Source of the DNA: Betaproteobacteria bacterium
GTDB lineage: Bacteria; Pseudomonadota; Gammaproteobacteria; Burkholderiales; Thiobacillaceae
DNA length: 46,905 bases
NCBI GenBank assembly: GCA_020049415.1
Contig: JAIFKV010000013.1
Span: 1-46,905, forward strand
Direction of reading: 5' to 3'
The position numbers and the translations under genes were made by a program. Position 1 is the first letter of the stretch. Every line of letters begins with the position of its first letter. This document shows positions 11,954-18,034 of this stretch, one piece after another. The notes below the pieces were generated by a model. The model saw only the letters and a list, made by a program, of their open reading frames with translations. It made no database searches and had not been told where the DNA came from.

Positions 11954-13051
11954 CTATGTTTTTACAAGCTTTTTATGTGTTGCCGCACTCATCACAATAC
12001 CAAAACCCAACATCACCGTAAGCATTGAGGTGCCGCCATAGCTGATCAACGGCAGCGGCACTCCCACCACGGGAAGGATGCCGGAGACCATGCCCATGTT
12101 GACGAAGGCATAAGTGAAGAAGGTCAGCACGATGGATCCCGACAGCAAGCGTCCGAACAGTGAGGGCGCACCGGCCGCCAGCCAGAGGCTGCGCCAGATG
12201 ATGGCGGCGTAGAGCAACAGCAGGAACAGGTTGCCGATCAGACCGAATTCTTCCGAGAACACCGCGAAGATGAAGTCGGTGCTGCGTTCTGGCAGAAAAT
12301 CGAGATGCGTCTGCGTACCCACCATCCAGCCCTTGCCGGCAACACCGCCGGAGCCGACGGCGATGGTCGACTGGATGATGTGATAGCCGGCGCCGAGCGG
12401 ATCCGATGCCGGATCGATCAACGTCAATACGCGCTGGCGCTGGTAGTCATGCAGCAGATAATTCCAGGCCAGAGGCAAGGCGGAAGCAGCCACGGTGGCG
12501 ACGCCGGCGATAATCTTCCAGGACAATCCGCCGAGGAACAGTACATAAAAGCCGGAAGCGGTAATCAGCAATGAGGTTCCTAAATCAGGCTGCTTGGCGA
12601 TAAAACCTACGGGTAGCGCCAGAAGCAGGCCAGCCAGAACAAAATCACGACCGCGCTGCGTTTCCTGTTTGTAATGGAAATACCACGCCAACATCATCGG
12701 CGCAGCCAGACGCATCAATTCAGAAGGTTGTACACGCGTTACGCCAAGCTCCAGCCAGCGCCGAGAGCCATTCACGACGACCCCGAACAGGGCCACGCCA
12801 AGCAACAGAAAAACACCGACGATATAGACCGGCAAGGCGAACTGCATCAGTCGTTGCGGTGGAATATGTGAAATCAGCAGCATCGCGACCAACGCCACGC
12901 CGATATTGCTCAAGTGCGAAACAACCCGTTCCCCATTCTCCCCGGAAGCGCTGAACACCACTGCCACGCTCAACATCAGCAACAACAGCAGAAGGCCGAT
13001 CAGCGGCCCGTCAAGATGGCTCACTGTGCGACGAATCATGCGCAGGATCAT
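11954..13051 (-). CDS. mrdB: rod shape-determining peptidoglycan glycosyltransferase RodA (SEDS)
   Basis: Integral-membrane SEDS polymerase that works with PBP2 in the elongasome. The 365-aa protein has about ten hydrophobic segments and family motifs including LGVTRVQPSELMRLA, KQPDLGTSLL, and the C-terminal PLISYGGTSMLT. Its ATG at 13051 overlaps the mrdA stop as ATGA, so the polymerase and its transpeptidase partner are translationally coupled. Confidence 0.96.
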   Translation of the reverse strand: MILRMIRRTVSHLDGPLIGLLLLLLMLSVAVVFSASGENGERVVSHLSNIGVALVAMLLISHIPPQRLMQFALPVYIVGVFLLLGVALFGVVVNGSRRWLELGVTRVQPSELMRLAAPMMLAWYFHYKQETQRGRDFVLAGLLLALPVGFIAKQPDLGTSLLITASGFYVLFLGGLSWKIIAGVATVAASALPLAWNYLLHDYQRQRVLTLIDPASDPLGAGYHIIQSTIAVGSGGVAGKGWMVGTQTHLDFLPERSTDFIFAVFSEEFGLIGNLFLLLLYAAIIWRSLWLAAGAPSLFGRLLSGSIVLTFFTYAFVNMGMVSGILPVVGVPLPLISYGGTSMLTVMLGFGIVMSAATHKKLVKT

Positions 13052-15036
13052 TCCGGAGTCTCCGTCGCAAGCGGGGGGGGCAGGGCGGGCGAGGCGATCT
13101 CTTCCGCCGGCCCGCTATCCTCGTTCTCTTCAACTTGTTCAGCTGCGGCCGCCGCTTTCAATTGTTGCGCCGCCGATTGACTCGGCAGTTTGCCCAGCAA
13201 CCAGTAATCGATCACTTTGCGGGCAATCGGCGCGGCGGTAGAACCGCCGTGGCCGCCGTTTTCAACCATCACCGCAACCACAATCCTGGGTGCGTCGGCG
13301 GGTGCAAAAGCGATGAATAATGCGTGATCGCGGTTTCGCGCCGCGACCTGGCCTTCAACATAGCGCTGCCCCTGCTTGATGCCGATAACCTGCGCCGTGC
13401 CGGTCTTGCCGGCAAACTGGTAAGGCGTGTTGGCGCCGGCGATGGAGGCGGTGCCGCCGGGCAGGGTGACATCAACCATGGCTTCCTTGACCAGACGCAC
13501 ATATTCCGGATTCAACTTGATCTTGTTCAAGACCTGCGGCGCGGCATAACCCAGTTTGCCGTCGGCGGGATTACGCCAGGCGCGAATCAACTGGGGTTTG
13601 TAAACCACGCCATCATTGGCGAGGGCCATGGTGGCGACGGCCAATTGCATCGGGGTGGTCAGCACATAGCCCTGACCGATGCCGGCAATAACGCTTTCAC
13701 CCGGATACCAAGGCTGCTTGAAGCGCTTGTTCTTCCATTCAGGGGTTGGCATCAGACCAGGCAACTCCCCATCCAGATCGATCCCGGATTTTTTCCCGAA
13801 ACCAAATTGCGAAAGAAAAGCCGACATCCGTTCGATTCCCATCTTGTGCGCCAGACCGTAGTAATAGGTATCGCAAGAGATAACGATAGAACGCTTCAGA
13901 TCGACGATGCCGTGACCGTCTTTCTTCCAGTCTCGGTAACGATGGCTGCTGCCGGGCAAACTGAAATACCCCGGATCGGAGATGCTGTCACTGGGTTTGC
14001 GTACCCCCAACTCCAGTCCGGCCAGGCCCATGAACGGCTTGATGGTTGAACCGGGCGGATAGACACCGCGTAACGCTCGGTTGATCAGTGGCCGATCGGG
14101 CGAGTCATTCAGCTCGCGCCAGGAGGCGATATCGATGCCATCGACGAACAGATTGGGATCAAACCCGGGCTTGGAGACCAGCGTCAGCACGCCGCCATTA
14201 CGTGGATCCAACGCAACCAGCGCGCCTCGATAGTCGCCAAAAACACTTTCCGCAACCTGCTGCAATTTGGCGTCCAGGTGCAGGTAAATGTTATAGCCCG
14301 CCACCGGCGGGGTACGGGAGAGCAAACGCACGGCGCGGCCGCCGGAATCGGTTTCCACCTTTTCGATGCCGGTTCGACCGTGCAGCCATTTTTCGTAGGC
14401 GGCTTCAATACCCAGTTTGCCGATGTGATCCGAGCCTTTGTAGTTGGCCAGCAGACCCTCTTCATTCAGGTGTTGCTGGTCTTGTTCGTTAATTCGACCG
14501 ATATAGCCAACAACGTGCGAAAAGCTGCTGCCCAGGGGATATTGTCGAAATTGGCGCGCCTTCATTTCCACACCAGGAAAACGATAACGATTCACCGCAA
14601 AGCGAGCGCTCTCCTCTTCGGTGAGCAGATTTCGTATCGGCAGGCTCTCGAAATTTTTACTCTCCGCCAGCAGTTTCTTGAAGCGCTTGCGGTCACCCGA
14701 ACCGATCTCCACGATTTCGCTCAGTTGATCTATGGTCGCCTCAAGTTTGCCGGCTTTGGCGGGCGTGATTTCAAGCGTGTGGGCGGAATAATTGTGCGCC
14801 AGTACAACGCTATGGCGGTCATAGACAACGCCACGAGGCGGCGGTGCCGGAACCAGGGAAATCCGATTGTTTTCCGCCAGCGCGTGGTAGTGATCGTACT
14901 GCACGACCTGGAGCCAGGCAAAACGTGCAAACAAACCCAGAAAAAGGATGCCGGCGATAATTCCGGCGATTTCCATACGCCGACGGTAGCGCATGAACTC
15001 CTGCTCTGGATTGATAAGCCGCAGTTTTTTGGCCAC
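13048..15036 (-). CDS. mrdA: penicillin-binding protein 2 (elongation transpeptidase)
   Basis: Inner-membrane DD-transpeptidase for lateral wall growth. One N-terminal membrane helix (about 24-46) is followed by the dimerisation domain and the transpeptidase motifs: STIK within YPPGSTIKPFMG, SCD in VISCDTYYYG, and KTG in FAGKTGTAQV. The C-terminal tail is Ala/Glu/Pro-rich. The 662-aa frame starts with GTG at 15036, for which no good ribosome site is visible; the ATG 14 codons later (14994) follows AGGAG at a short distance and is an alternative start. Upstream, only 19 bp separate the GTG from the palindromic element at 15056-15217. Confidence 0.95.
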   Translation of the reverse strand: MAKKLRLINPEQEFMRYRRRMEIAGIIAGILFLGLFARFAWLQVVQYDHYHALAENNRISLVPAPPPRGVVYDRHSVVLAHNYSAHTLEITPAKAGKLEATIDQLSEIVEIGSGDRKRFKKLLAESKNFESLPIRNLLTEEESARFAVNRYRFPGVEMKARQFRQYPLGSSFSHVVGYIGRINEQDQQHLNEEGLLANYKGSDHIGKLGIEAAYEKWLHGRTGIEKVETDSGGRAVRLLSRTPPVAGYNIYLHLDAKLQQVAESVFGDYRGALVALDPRNGGVLTLVSKPGFDPNLFVDGIDIASWRELNDSPDRPLINRALRGVYPPGSTIKPFMGLAGLELGVRKPSDSISDPGYFSLPGSSHRYRDWKKDGHGIVDLKRSIVISCDTYYYGLAHKMGIERMSAFLSQFGFGKKSGIDLDGELPGLMPTPEWKNKRFKQPWYPGESVIAGIGQGYVLTTPMQLAVATMALANDGVVYKPQLIRAWRNPADGKLGYAAPQVLNKIKLNPEYVRLVKEAMVDVTLPGGTASIAGANTPYQFAGKTGTAQVIGIKQGQRYVEGQVAARNRDHALFIAFAPADAPRIVVAVMVENGGHGGSTAAPIARKVIDYWLLGKLPSQSAAQQLKAAAAAEQVEENEDSGPAEEIASPALPPPLATETPE

Positions 15037-15055
15037 AACGGAATCGCGTTATTAG

Positions 15056-15217
15056 CCCGGATATTTCATAAATTCGCGTGATGATCGCGCTGGACCTTGT
15101 CGGCAATGGGAATTTTCCGAAGGAGTGGCGTAATTATTCATACGCCCGACCGAGGAAAATTTTCCAGTGCGGACAAGGGAGCCGCGAGGGCACGTGAGCA
15201 TTTATAAAATATCCGGG
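15056..15217 (-). repeat. 162-bp near-palindromic element between mreD and mrdA (copy A)
   Basis: The ends are inverted repeats: CCCGGATATTTCATAAAT on the left and ATTTATAAAATATCCGGG on the right (17 of 18 pair). Pairing continues inward in blocks: CGTG/CACG, CGCG/CGCG, CCTTGTC/GACAAGG, GGGAATTTTCC/GGAAAATTTTCC with wobble, and a central GGCGTA-TGAATAAT-TACGCC hairpin in mre sense. It fills nearly the whole mreD-mrdA gap and has a diverged sister at 16694-16854. No transposase or coding frame is inside. It resembles a MITE or REP/BIME-like element, but I cannot assign it to a named family. Confidence 0.85.
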
Positions 15218-15223
15218 TTAGGG

Positions 15224-15766
15224 TTAATACGACGCTTGCTGACCAACCGCCGCACTGGCTCGGCCGGTAATACGATCCACCAACCAGGCCAATGGCGACC
15301 AAAGCAAGGTCGCAACAACGCCAGCGGCGAGCCAACGCCAGTCGACCATGCCGCGTCCGATCGCCAGTCCAATCGCCAGCACCAGCAATTCCTTGCCCAG
15401 CAGAATGGGGGCAAGTTGCAGTGTCTGTCGCGTCGCGTCGAAGCCGGCAAGGCGGCGCTGCACCAGCAACACCACAAAGGTGGCGGCGCAAAAGGCGAGT
15501 GCGTTGAGACCAATCAGCACGCCGCGCGCAACGTCGGAAAGCAGGCCAAAACCAAATGCCGCGCCCAAGCCTGCCAGACGCGGCGCACGAATGTTCCAGT
15601 ACAGCAAGGCCATCAGAGTGAAGTCTGGCACCAGCCAGCGGTAAGTCTCTGACCAAGGCAACAAAGTCAACGCAAAAGCGAGAATCAGGCTGACATAGAC
15701 TTTGATGCGTGTTGGCGGGTGCGTCAGCTCAGCGCCTTGCGGCAACAGGGGCTTGTGCATATTCAT
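15224..15766 (-). CDS. mreD: rod shape-determining protein MreD
   Basis: A 180-aa integral membrane protein with several hydrophobic helices, linking MreC and the MreB filament to the wall synthases. The start MNMHKPLL at 15766 is chosen because it overlaps the mreC stop as ATGA; the frame extends upstream to 15886 but that part lies inside mreC. After its stop, 6 bp remain before the palindromic element. Confidence 0.9.
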   Translation of the reverse strand: MNMHKPLLPQGAELTHPPTRIKVYVSLILAFALTLLPWSETYRWLVPDFTLMALLYWNIRAPRLAGLGAAFGFGLLSDVARGVLIGLNALAFCAATFVVLLVQRRLAGFDATRQTLQLAPILLGKELLVLAIGLAIGRGMVDWRWLAAGVVATLLWSPLAWLVDRITGRASAAVGQQASY

Positions 15767-16659
15767 GGACGCGCTCCAGGCGATTTTGCCGGCGCGAGGA
15801 TTTTCGTGGTCGGCTTGGCGGCGGTCTCGGCGGGAACGAGGATCACAACGTGACGATACTTGCCAACCCCGCCGAGCGGCTGGCACAGCGCACGTGCAAA
15901 AGGCGTATGGCGCGGTTGCTCGACTTTGATTACCCGCGCAACCGGTACGCCGGCAGGATAAACGCCGTCGATACCGGAGGTGTAGAGAAGATCGCCTGGT
16001 TGCAAGTCGGCGTGCATGTCGAGAAAACGGACCTCAAGTTGATTATCTGAACCTTGACCGGAAACGATAGAACGTAAACCGTTGCGTAAATTTTGCACGG
16101 GCGCGCCTTGATCCCGGTCGGTCAACAAGGTGACCTCGGCGGTCCAGGCATAGACGCGCGTGACCTGGCCCACCAGCCCGATCGCGTCAACCACCGGCAC
16201 CCCCGCGACAACGCCTTGACTGCTGCCCCGATTGATAATGACTTTTCGGGTAAATGGATTGGGTGCAGCCTCGATCACTTCACCTGTCAGCGTGTTGAAA
16301 CCAGGTCGTGGCGGCAACGCCAGCAGCGCGCGCAGTTGTGCATTTTCCTTGGCGACAGCGGCGTGTTCGCGCACGCTGGCGCCCAGGATGTCCTGTTGTT
16401 GCTTGAGCCGGGTGTTTTCGGCCACCAGCTCGCCATGTCCAACAAAGAAGTGGCCGACGTTTTGCAGCCATTCCCAAGGTTGCGCCAGCACCATCTGAGC
16501 GGGATGAATGATCGCGTTGAGACCGGCGCGCAGACCGAACAGCGTCGAATAACGCGCATCCAGCGCCAGCAGAAACAGGCAGACGAGCACGTACAGACTG
16601 AAACGGGCTGGCAGCCCCATCTCCCGAATGAACAATGGCGCACTAGGGGCGGGAGACAT
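15763..16659 (-). CDS. mreC: rod shape-determining protein MreC
   Basis: Periplasmic elongasome scaffold anchored by one N-terminal membrane helix (about residues 15-36). The 298-aa protein continues with a predicted coiled coil (LVAENTRLKQQQDILG...KENAQLRALL, about 78-118) and the MreC beta domains (VINRGSSQGVVAGVPV, LLTDRDQGAPVQ, GDLLYTSGIDGVYPAGVPV). The tail is Ala/Pro/Lys-rich. It precedes mreD with a 4-bp overlap and is separated from mreB by element B. Confidence 0.95.
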   Translation of the reverse strand: MSPAPSAPLFIREMGLPARFSLYVLVCLFLLALDARYSTLFGLRAGLNAIIHPAQMVLAQPWEWLQNVGHFFVGHGELVAENTRLKQQQDILGASVREHAAVAKENAQLRALLALPPRPGFNTLTGEVIEAAPNPFTRKVIINRGSSQGVVAGVPVVDAIGLVGQVTRVYAWTAEVTLLTDRDQGAPVQNLRNGLRSIVSGQGSDNQLEVRFLDMHADLQPGDLLYTSGIDGVYPAGVPVARVIKVEQPRHTPFARALCQPLGGVGKYRHVVILVPAETAAKPTTKILAPAKSPGARP

Positions 16660-16693
16660 GAGAAATTAAAGTACGCAAGGTTGAAGTGACTCG

Positions 16694-16854
16694 CCCGGAT
16701 ATTTCATGAATTCACGCGATGATCGCGCAGAACATTGTTTGCACAGGGAATTCCGAGAAGGCGTGACGTAGTTATTCATACCCCCGACTGAGCGGAATTT
16801 CCTGTGCGGACAAGGGACAAGCGAGGGCGCGTGAGGATTCATGAAACATCCGGG
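16694..16854 (-). repeat. 161-bp near-palindromic element between mreB and mreC (copy B)
   Basis: It is homologous along its full length to the element at 15056-15217 but substantially diverged. The ends CCCGGATATTTCATGAATTC and GGATTCATGAAACATCCGGG pair at 18 of 20. Inward pairing includes CACGCG/CGCGTG and GCACAGGGAATTCC/GGAATTTCCTGTGC (13 of 14). The centre has GTATGAATAACTAC in mre sense. Where the copies differ in the arms, changes often occur in both partners (for example CATAAAT/ATTTATA in A versus CATGAAT/ATTCATG here), so the palindrome is kept. Confidence 0.85.
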
Positions 16855-16912
16855 CTGGGCGCAAGGTGCAAGGCGAACCTTGAACCGTGCTCCCCCGCCC
16901 CTTGTGCCGGCC

Positions 16913-18034
<1,122 letters not shown>

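What the first reader, a model, noticed from the sequence alone, without database searches (positions are those of the whole stretch)
15056..16854. Two diverged, near-palindromic ~161-bp elements fill the two wide gaps of the mre/mrd operon
Copies at 15056-15217 and 16694-16854 lie between mreD/mrdA and mreB/mreC; elsewhere these genes overlap or nearly touch. Each folds end to end, and differences between copies often occur in both arms (CATAAAT/ATTTATA versus CATGAAT/ATTCATG), so pairing seems conserved over sequence. They are transcribed with the operon and would form long RNA hairpins, possibly processing sites that set separate levels of MreB, MreCD and PBP2/RodA. They could instead be old MITE/REP insertions that kept their symmetry.
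Basis: partly seen in the sequence, partly recalled or inferred. Interest (0 to 1): 0.78.

Follow-up and report, generated by a model that had tools for sequence, protein, structure and literature searches.

The report
Jumping hairpin elements in cell-shape operon
The two matching hairpin-shaped stretches in a bacterial cell-shape operon are most likely not dedicated switches of that operon but two of many copies of a small 'jumping' DNA element scattered through this genome and some relatives, whose hairpin shape is kept in the element's family tree but is decaying in this genome's own copies.

Summary
Elements of 162 bp (15056-15217) and 161 bp (16694-16854) sit in the mreD/mrdA and mreB/mreC gaps, are about 80% identical and fold end to end (z -9.6 and -8.6).

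They are dispersed transposon derivatives. The own genome gives 45 matches (33 distinct places in the stretches fetched); 19 of 61 genomes searched, own included, have matches. Ends are CCCGGATATTTCAT with a 4-bp YTAR duplication (TTAG/TTAG at element 1, decayed at element 2). An intact IS in the same genus has these ends and an IS1380-family (PF13701) transposase. The 29 relatives' mre loci examined all lack the elements. Best reading: a MITE (small non-autonomous transposon) moved by IS1380-type transposase.

'Pairing conserved over sequence' is true for the family (46 of 66 pairs change on both sides) but not at these sites: this genome's copies lose pairing at the unconstrained rate, and neither mre copy has a compensatory change on its own branch.

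Two leads suggest a strand-specific role of the hairpin: G.U-type mismatches are tolerated on one strand, and copies lie antisense to flanking genes 44:15. No promoter- or terminator-like site lies in the elements. RNA processing is untested.

The parts
15056..15217 (+). Element 1: 162-bp near-palindromic MITE between mreD and mrdA; family + strand is antisense to the operon
   Evidence: Sequence; copies elsewhere; fold z -9.58 in operon sense
15052..15055 (.). Left target-site duplication TTAG of element 1
   Evidence: sequence; one search lists L001 as TTAG/TTAG
15218..15221 (.). Right target-site duplication TTAG of element 1, 2 bp from the mreD stop codon (15224-15226)
16694..16854 (+). 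Element 2: 161-bp near-palindromic MITE between mreB and mreC; family + strand antisense to the operon
   Evidence: Sequence; one search match 16693-16854; fold z -8.55 in operon sense
16690..16693 (.). Left flank CTCG of element 2, taken as a decayed YTAR duplication
   Evidence: One search lists L186 as CTCG/CTGG
16855..16858 (.). Right flank CTGG of element 2, taken as a decayed YTAR duplication
15056..15073 (+). Left terminal inverted repeat of element 1 (CCCGGATATTTCATAAAT)
15200..15217 (-). Right terminal inverted repeat of element 1
16694..16711 (+). Left terminal inverted repeat of element 2 (CCCGGATATTTCATGAAT)
   Evidence: I1
16837..16854 (-). Right terminal inverted repeat of element 2
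   Evidence: I1
16913..18031 (-). mreB (upstream of element 2; the ORF's start codon is uncertain). Gene name recalled from the protein, consistent with the operon order
   Evidence: ORF; 88-98% identical in the 20 same-genus loci
15763..16659 (-). mreC
15224..15886 (-). mreD ORF (true start probably lies downstream of the listed one)
13048..15036 (-). mrdA (PBP2)

Best explanation
The two elements are copies of a non-autonomous IS1380-type transposon (a MITE of about 162 bp plus a 4-bp YTAR target duplication). Shown here: dispersal, shared ends, target duplications, an intact IS in the same genus with these ends and a PF13701 transposase, and absence from 29 relatives' mre loci. Inferred: an IS1380-family transposase acting in trans recognised the CCCGGATATTTCAT ends and inserted the element into two YTAR sites in short non-coding gaps of the mre operon, one 2 bp beyond the mreD stop codon, where it was tolerated. 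The hairpin is maintained, by selection or by arm-to-arm correction, in lineages that propagate; copies now sitting in this genome decay. In the operon mRNA the elements would form long hairpins; any effect on mre expression is more likely a by-product of insertion than a conserved device.
For: Dispersal: 45 matches in the own genome, 33 distinct places in the stretches fetched; 19 of 61 genomes and 7 of 36 genera, own included. Ends and duplication: left and right 4-mers identical in 40 of 85 copies against 14.1 (maximum 25) in 2000 shuffles; of 131 places CTAG 43, TTAA 24, TTAG 17, CTAA 12, mixed 8, decayed 27. Partner: L216, a 1574-bp element in the same genus with a perfect right end, a 3-mismatch left end, TTAG flanks and an open 462-aa frame covering PF13701 positions 3-432 of 435; L174, a 1640-bp element with both ends and a PF13701 frame (E 2.6e-80, positions 2-238 of 435, so probably interrupted); the two proteins are 57.6% identical over 245 aa. 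Absence: none of 29 relatives' mreB-mrdA loci has an inverted pair of ends at up to 3 mismatches in 14; their gaps are 32-196 and -16 to 148 nt, and taking element plus duplication away leaves 88 and 21 nt here. Decay: on the 18 own-genome terminal branches 104 pairs broken by single changes against 110 +/- 6 expected without constraint, 6 double changes against 3.7; mre copies 0 double changes, 7 of 8 single changes at paired columns breaking a pair.
Against: No PF13701 gene was found in the own genome, which is 84% complete in 228 contigs; and G008, which has the intact IS, has no MITE match. The partner rests on shared ends, not co-occurrence. Similarity between MITE and L216 is not apparent beyond the ends, so descent from that IS is not shown. 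The duplication of element 2 is decayed. Terminal branches of the 55 copies from other genomes do show constraint (42 double changes against 9.0, single breaks 117 against 202 +/- 8), so 'settled copies decay' is shown for this genome's copies only; young copies and lone representatives of long lineages are mixed in that group. Family covariation and orientation bias show the hairpin is not mere debris in every respect.
Confidence: 0.9

Rival explanations
1. Operon-specific RNA processing sites: the hairpins are cut (for instance by RNase III) and set different levels of MreB, MreCD and PBP2/RodA.
For: Both copies fold far better than shuffles in the operon's sense. Published precedent: RNase III cuts Correia-element transcripts, and ERIC changes mRNA stability in Yersinia (passages of PMC10969869 and PMC2229807).
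Against: Absent from the 29 relatives' mre loci examined; dispersed through the genome; no compensatory change on the mre copies' own branches, though these branches carry only 9 and 4 changed sites. No expression data.
Confidence: 0.07
2. The MITE carries a strand-specific hairpin (an RNA, or a single-stranded DNA fold, of the family + strand) that is needed while the element propagates. Copies that would put this strand into host mRNA are selected against. This adds to the MITE reading rather than replacing it.
For: 46 of 66 pairs change on both sides; 244 double-change cells against 73 in shuffles, 0 of 500. Internal branches: 19 double paired-to-paired changes against 2.1 expected, pair-breaking singles 48 against 120. 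G.T exceeds A.C on the + strand 408 to 118; internal changes to G.T against A.C 35:17 (p 0.018), own terminal 34:39, other terminal 63:48 (p 0.18); internal against own terminal Fisher p 0.029. No matching excess of + strand C>T and A>G changes at paired columns (56 against 61). + strand more stable in 72 of 73 copies. Between same-direction genes the + strand is antisense to the genes 44:15, p 2e-4, 40:13 with 2 ties after merging homologous flanks.
Against: Parsimony on a short, star-like alignment; four majority G.U columns, 199 of the 408 G.T cells, are shared by descent. Terminal copies of other genomes show no significant G.T excess. Genes were called by a simple codon-usage script. The orientation bias was noticed in the own genome first; newly fetched loci alone gave 18:8, p 0.08; G017 copies, many nearly identical, gave 4:3. 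The 180-bp Desulfobacterota family has no bias (20:18). Replication direction was not separated from gene direction. It is unexplained why a strand kept out of host mRNA would be the one selected to fold.
Confidence: 0.35
3. Covariation comes only from arm-to-arm copying (template switching within the palindrome) in active copies, with no selection on folding.
For: Would explain double changes along the whole stem.
Against: Predicts equal G.T and A.C mismatches; observed 35:17 on internal branches. This genome's copies do not show such repair: 6 double changes against 3.7 expected.
Confidence: 0.2

Closest known systems
IS1380-family insertion sequences (DDE_Tnp_1_4, PF13701; the family assignment of this domain is recalled)
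   Same: Same ends and 4-bp YTAR flanks as L216 and L174, which carry PF13701 frames
   Different: The element has no transposase gene and no evident similarity to those IS elements beyond the ends
Correia/NEMIS elements of Neisseria
   Same: Short inverted-repeat elements in transcribed regions, long stem-loops; RNase III cleavage reported (PMC10969869 and PMC2229807, passages)
   Different: Correia termini carry TA (table in PMC2229807) rather than YTAR; no cleavage shown here
ERIC/IRU elements of enterobacteria
   Same: Dispersed short repeats; orientation is crucial for their effect on mRNA in Yersinia (PMC2229807 passage)
   Different: 127 bp; here orientation is a count of positions, not an expression test
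Chunjie MITE of Geobacter uraniireducens
   Same: 178-235 bp; inserted in an operon (cited title: without disturbing the operon structure; the review's text says it disrupts one copy of a phosphate uptake operon; PMC10969869 passages)
   Different: Its ends and duplication could not be compared: the paper is not held
piggyBac elements of eukaryotes
   Same: TTAA 4-bp duplication, a few with TTAG or CTAA, ends mostly starting CCC; IS1380 transposases serve as outgroup (PMC10813416 passages)
   Different: Eukaryotic transposons with long transposase genes; no comparison was run here

Membership tests
MITE (non-autonomous IS derivative) | Multiple dispersed copies | tested here: met
   45 matches own genome, 33 distinct places in fetched stretches; 19 of 61 genomes
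MITE (non-autonomous IS derivative) | Terminal inverted repeats and target-site duplication | tested here: met
   CCCGGATATTTCAT ends; YTAR identical in 40 of 85 against 14.1 in shuffles; element 2's own duplication is decayed
MITE (non-autonomous IS derivative) | No transposase gene of its own | tested here: met
   161-162 bp; longest open frame in the consensus 49 codons on each strand; kept in 16 of 41 same-length copies against 21.8 expected (- strand) and 34 of 41 against 28.7 (+ strand)
MITE (non-autonomous IS derivative) | Insertion absent at the same locus in relatives | tested here: met
   29 of 29 relatives' loci examined (20 same genus, 2 same family, 7 same order) lack the ends; the exact empty target was not reconstructed
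MITE (non-autonomous IS derivative) | Moved in trans by a transposase | not testable with these tools
   Needs a transposition assay
IS1380-family origin | Ends shared with an IS encoding a PF13701 transposase | tested here: met
   L216, intact frame; L174, probably interrupted
IS1380-family origin | Transposase present in the same genome (usual, not required) | tested here: not met
   0 matches in G000, which is 84% complete
Described structured RNA (Rfam) | Match above a family's gathering score | tested here: not met
   14900-17000 scanned; two matches, 21.2 and 20.6 bits against gathering scores of 150 and 70
Intrinsic terminator or sigma-70 promoter element | Terminator- or promoter-like site inside the element | tested here: not met
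   No promoter-like site; none of 3 terminator-like sites lies in an element; none of either around a young copy. Simple consensus scans only
Correia- or ERIC-like processing site | Cleavage of transcripts at the element | not testable with these tools
   No RNA data available

The most novel reading that the evidence does not exclude
A bacterial MITE family whose hairpin on one strand is actively maintained as a single-strand fold, most simply an RNA, while the element propagates. It tolerates G.U better than A.C mismatches, and copies are retained mainly where that strand is kept out of host mRNA: a mobile hairpin that works as a strand-specific molecule rather than as passive debris.
Probability: 0.3. 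Interest if true: 0.6.

Novelty: new member of a known kind. Interest (0 to 1): 0.36.

Why it matters
It removes a false lead (a dedicated mre operon device) and describes a widespread element family with clear ends and target that the searches made here did not find in print. Because this genome's own copies and the propagating lineages can be compared, it shows that covariation in a repeat family does not imply function at a given locus, and it makes the question why bacterial MITEs are palindromic testable through the strand asymmetry.

Tried and rejected
Rejected: known RNA family; promoter- or terminator-like sites; a conserved small protein (49-codon frames exist on both strands of the consensus, but the - strand frame is kept in 16 of 41 same-length copies against 21.8 expected with random substitutions, the + strand frame in 34 of 41 against 28.7); a mutational strand bias as cause of the G.T excess (56 against 61).

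Led nowhere or not decisive: replication direction. GC skew in the window is weak, and a DnaA domain search in the genome of L077 gave a best match of 37.8 bits in a 328-aa frame, not a convincing dnaA, so orientation was not tested against replication, and the copies of the 180-bp family listed for that genome were not used further. RNAalifold gave a weak consensus (-35.5 on the + strand, -15.2 on the - strand), so I used the fold of the consensus sequence. L218 and L221 (PF13701 proteins in the genus) gave no blastp match to L216 at 1e-3, and their ends did not match.

Papers: PMC10813416, PMC10969869, PMC2229807, PMC9208149, PMC4853749, PMC2267715 and PMC3049150 were seen as found passages only. 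PMC9208149 says IS1380 elements are overrepresented between same-direction genes. Others were seen in search listings. Searches of the held library behind the novelty statement: IS1380 with MITE, MITE with RNase III, operon, Correia, the end sequence on both strands (0 papers), ERIC and orientation, MITE with Desulfo, IS1380, Chunjie, Chunjie, compensatory and orientation bias, ERIC with compensatory. No title or abstract start that I saw describes this family; the papers themselves were mostly not opened, and ISfinder was not available.

Rows dropped: of 87 full-length copies 73 entered the covariation set (length 165-171, and without L132). Desulfobacterota test: 89 of 113 pattern loci, 24 left out by title. 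In the orientation test 72 of 131 places were not between same-direction genes and gave no information. Loci were kept for 30 of the 40 genomes with an MreC match; the other 10 were not looked at.

Full report
What is there. They align in register at 78% over 115 nt and 82% over 62 nt. The operon runs on the minus strand: mreB, element 2, mreC, mreD, element 1, mrdA. In the operon's sense they fold at -76.5 and -74.6 kcal/mol, z -9.58 and -8.55, 0 of 200 shuffles as good.

It is a dispersed family. The own genome gives 45 matches at E <= 0.001 with element 1 as query; some are two pieces or the other strand of one copy. In the stretches fetched there are 33 distinct places. Matches occur in 19 of 61 genomes and 7 of 36 genera, own included. 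The end pattern is in at least 113 stretches of named contigs, mostly titled Deltaproteobacteria, Syntrophobacterales or Desulfobacterota, with some Gamma-, Beta- and Alphaproteobacteria and Acidobacteriota; that scan stopped at its limit. One same-genus genome, G002, has a contig of the same length (42731) as a contig of the MAG titled Tepidiphilus sp. J10, so the host is probably close to that record (inference).

Ends and target. Copies begin CCCGGATATTTCAT, end with its complement and are flanked by YTAR. Left and right 4-mers are identical in 40 of 85 copies; shuffling gives 14.1 on average and 25 at most in 2000. Of 131 places 43 have CTAG, 24 TTAA, 17 TTAG, 12 CTAA, 8 mixed and 27 decayed. 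Element 1 has TTAG on both sides; element 2 has CTCG and CTGG. YTAR contains a stop codon in either direction, which may make insertion at gene ends harmless (inference). Element 1 with its duplication lies 2 bp beyond the mreD stop.

The likely mobiliser. L216, in the same genus, holds a 1574-bp element with a perfect right end, a left end with 3 mismatches, TTAG flanks and an open 462-aa frame that covers 430 of 435 PF13701 positions. L174 holds a 1640-bp element with both ends and a PF13701 frame (E 2.6e-80) that covers only positions 2-238, so it is probably interrupted. The proteins are 57.6% identical over 245 aa. That PF13701 is the domain of IS1380-family transposases is general knowledge. 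Passages of PMC10813416 use IS1380 transposases as outgroup of a piggyBac tree and describe TTAA duplications, a few TTAG or CTAA. The own genome has no PF13701 match but is 84% complete; G008, which holds L216, has no MITE match.

Relatives lack the insertions. An MreC search matched 40 of 41 genomes; loci were kept for 30, own plus 29 relatives (20 of the same genus, 2 of the family, 7 of the order). None of the 29 has an inverted pair of ends at up to 3 mismatches in 14. Their gaps are 32 to 196 nt (mreB-mreC) and -16 to 148 nt (mreD-mrdA); own gaps are 253 and 187 nt, or 88 and 21 nt without element and duplication. Ten further loci reached through MreB, partly from the same genomes and covering the mreD-mrdA gap at best in part, also lack the ends.

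Is pairing conserved? At family level, yes. On 73 copies 46 of 66 pairs have a change on both sides, and 244 cells do against 73.2 in shuffles; all five measures exceed each of 500 shuffles, and sliding the partner by 1-3 columns lowers the 244 to 46-76. A tree separates regimes. Internal branches (71): 19 double paired-to-paired changes against 2.1 expected, 48 pair-breaking single changes against 120 +/- 6. Terminal branches of the 18 own-genome copies: 6 against 3.7, and 104 against 110 +/- 6. Terminal branches of the 55 other copies: 42 against 9.0, and 117 against 202 +/- 8. So the copies in this genome decay as if unconstrained, whereas the mixed group from other genomes, with young copies and lone representatives of long lineages, still shows constraint. 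The two mre copies have no double change on their own branches and 7 of their 8 single changes at paired columns break a pair, though the branches are short (9 and 4 changed sites).

A strand-specific signal. The family + strand folds better than its complement in 72 of 73 copies, by 18 kcal/mol on average; mismatches are more often G.T than A.C on that strand, 408 to 118, of which 199 G.T lie in four majority columns. New mismatches on internal branches are 35 G.T to 17 A.C (p 0.018); own terminal 34 to 39; other terminal 63 to 48 (p 0.18); internal against own, Fisher 0.029. There is no excess of C>T and A>G over G>A and T>C at paired columns that would explain it (56 to 61). This is what a folded single strand, RNA or DNA, would leave. 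The 180-bp Desulfobacterota family also folds better on one strand (40 of 41 copies; G.T 192, A.C 111), but those copies share ancestry.

Orientation. First seen in the own genome (13:5 antisense) and then in relatives (21:5). With more loci, a profile search and a simple codon-usage gene caller there are 131 distinct places: 59 between same-direction genes, 22 overlapping a called gene, 18 convergent, 17 divergent, 15 at contig edges. In the 59 the + strand is antisense 44:15 (p 2e-4): own 15:4, relatives 29:11 (p 0.006), newly fetched loci alone 18:8 (p 0.08), gaps under 350 nt 27:7, wider gaps 17:8 (p 0.11). Merging homologous flanks gives 40:13 with two ties. Symmetric targets only give 22:10, p 0.05; G017 copies 4:3. 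The Desulfobacterota family gives 20:18. Replication direction was not tested.

Reading. The elements are MITE copies, tolerated in short gaps of a cell-shape operon. They would be transcribed with it and fold, and may alter mRNA stability as Correia and ERIC elements are reported to do (passages), but nothing here shows that they are kept for it. The open and more interesting question is why the propagating lineages keep the hairpin, apparently on one strand, and why copies tend to keep that strand out of host mRNA.

Noticed in passing
L187 (mreB-mreC gap), L189 (mreB-mreC gap), L197 (mreD-mrdA gap): Some relatives carry other repeats in the same gaps: a long inverted repeat in L187, repeated GTGAAAGGTGA/GTTTCACC-like units in L189, and an inverted repeat with GTAGGAGCGGGCTTGCCCGCGA (REP-like, recalled) in L197. 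The gaps look tolerant of hairpins.
   Followed up: no
Element ends, e.g. minus strand of 15052-15073: In the family consensus the ends read outward as ATG AAA TAT CCG GGY TAR, closing a 49-codon frame on each strand that stops in the target duplication; the frames are not clearly conserved.
   Followed up: partly
G017 (L295-L314): G017 gives 57 matches, many 97-100% identical to the query and many at contig ends, including 197-bp copies with an insert after about 29 bases: probably a recent burst.
   Followed up: partly
L073-L185 and the genome of L077: A second palindromic family of about 180 bp with the same ends but a different interior is abundant in Desulfobacterota; one chromosome of about 3.6 Mb gave 212 first-look candidates, of which the 40 scored gave 77 matches counting both strands.
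   Followed up: partly
Stop-codon boundaries of upstream genes, list: In 13 of 59 same-direction gaps the element begins at the upstream gene's own stop codon (distance -3 or -4); 12 of these 13 are in the antisense orientation.
   Followed up: partly
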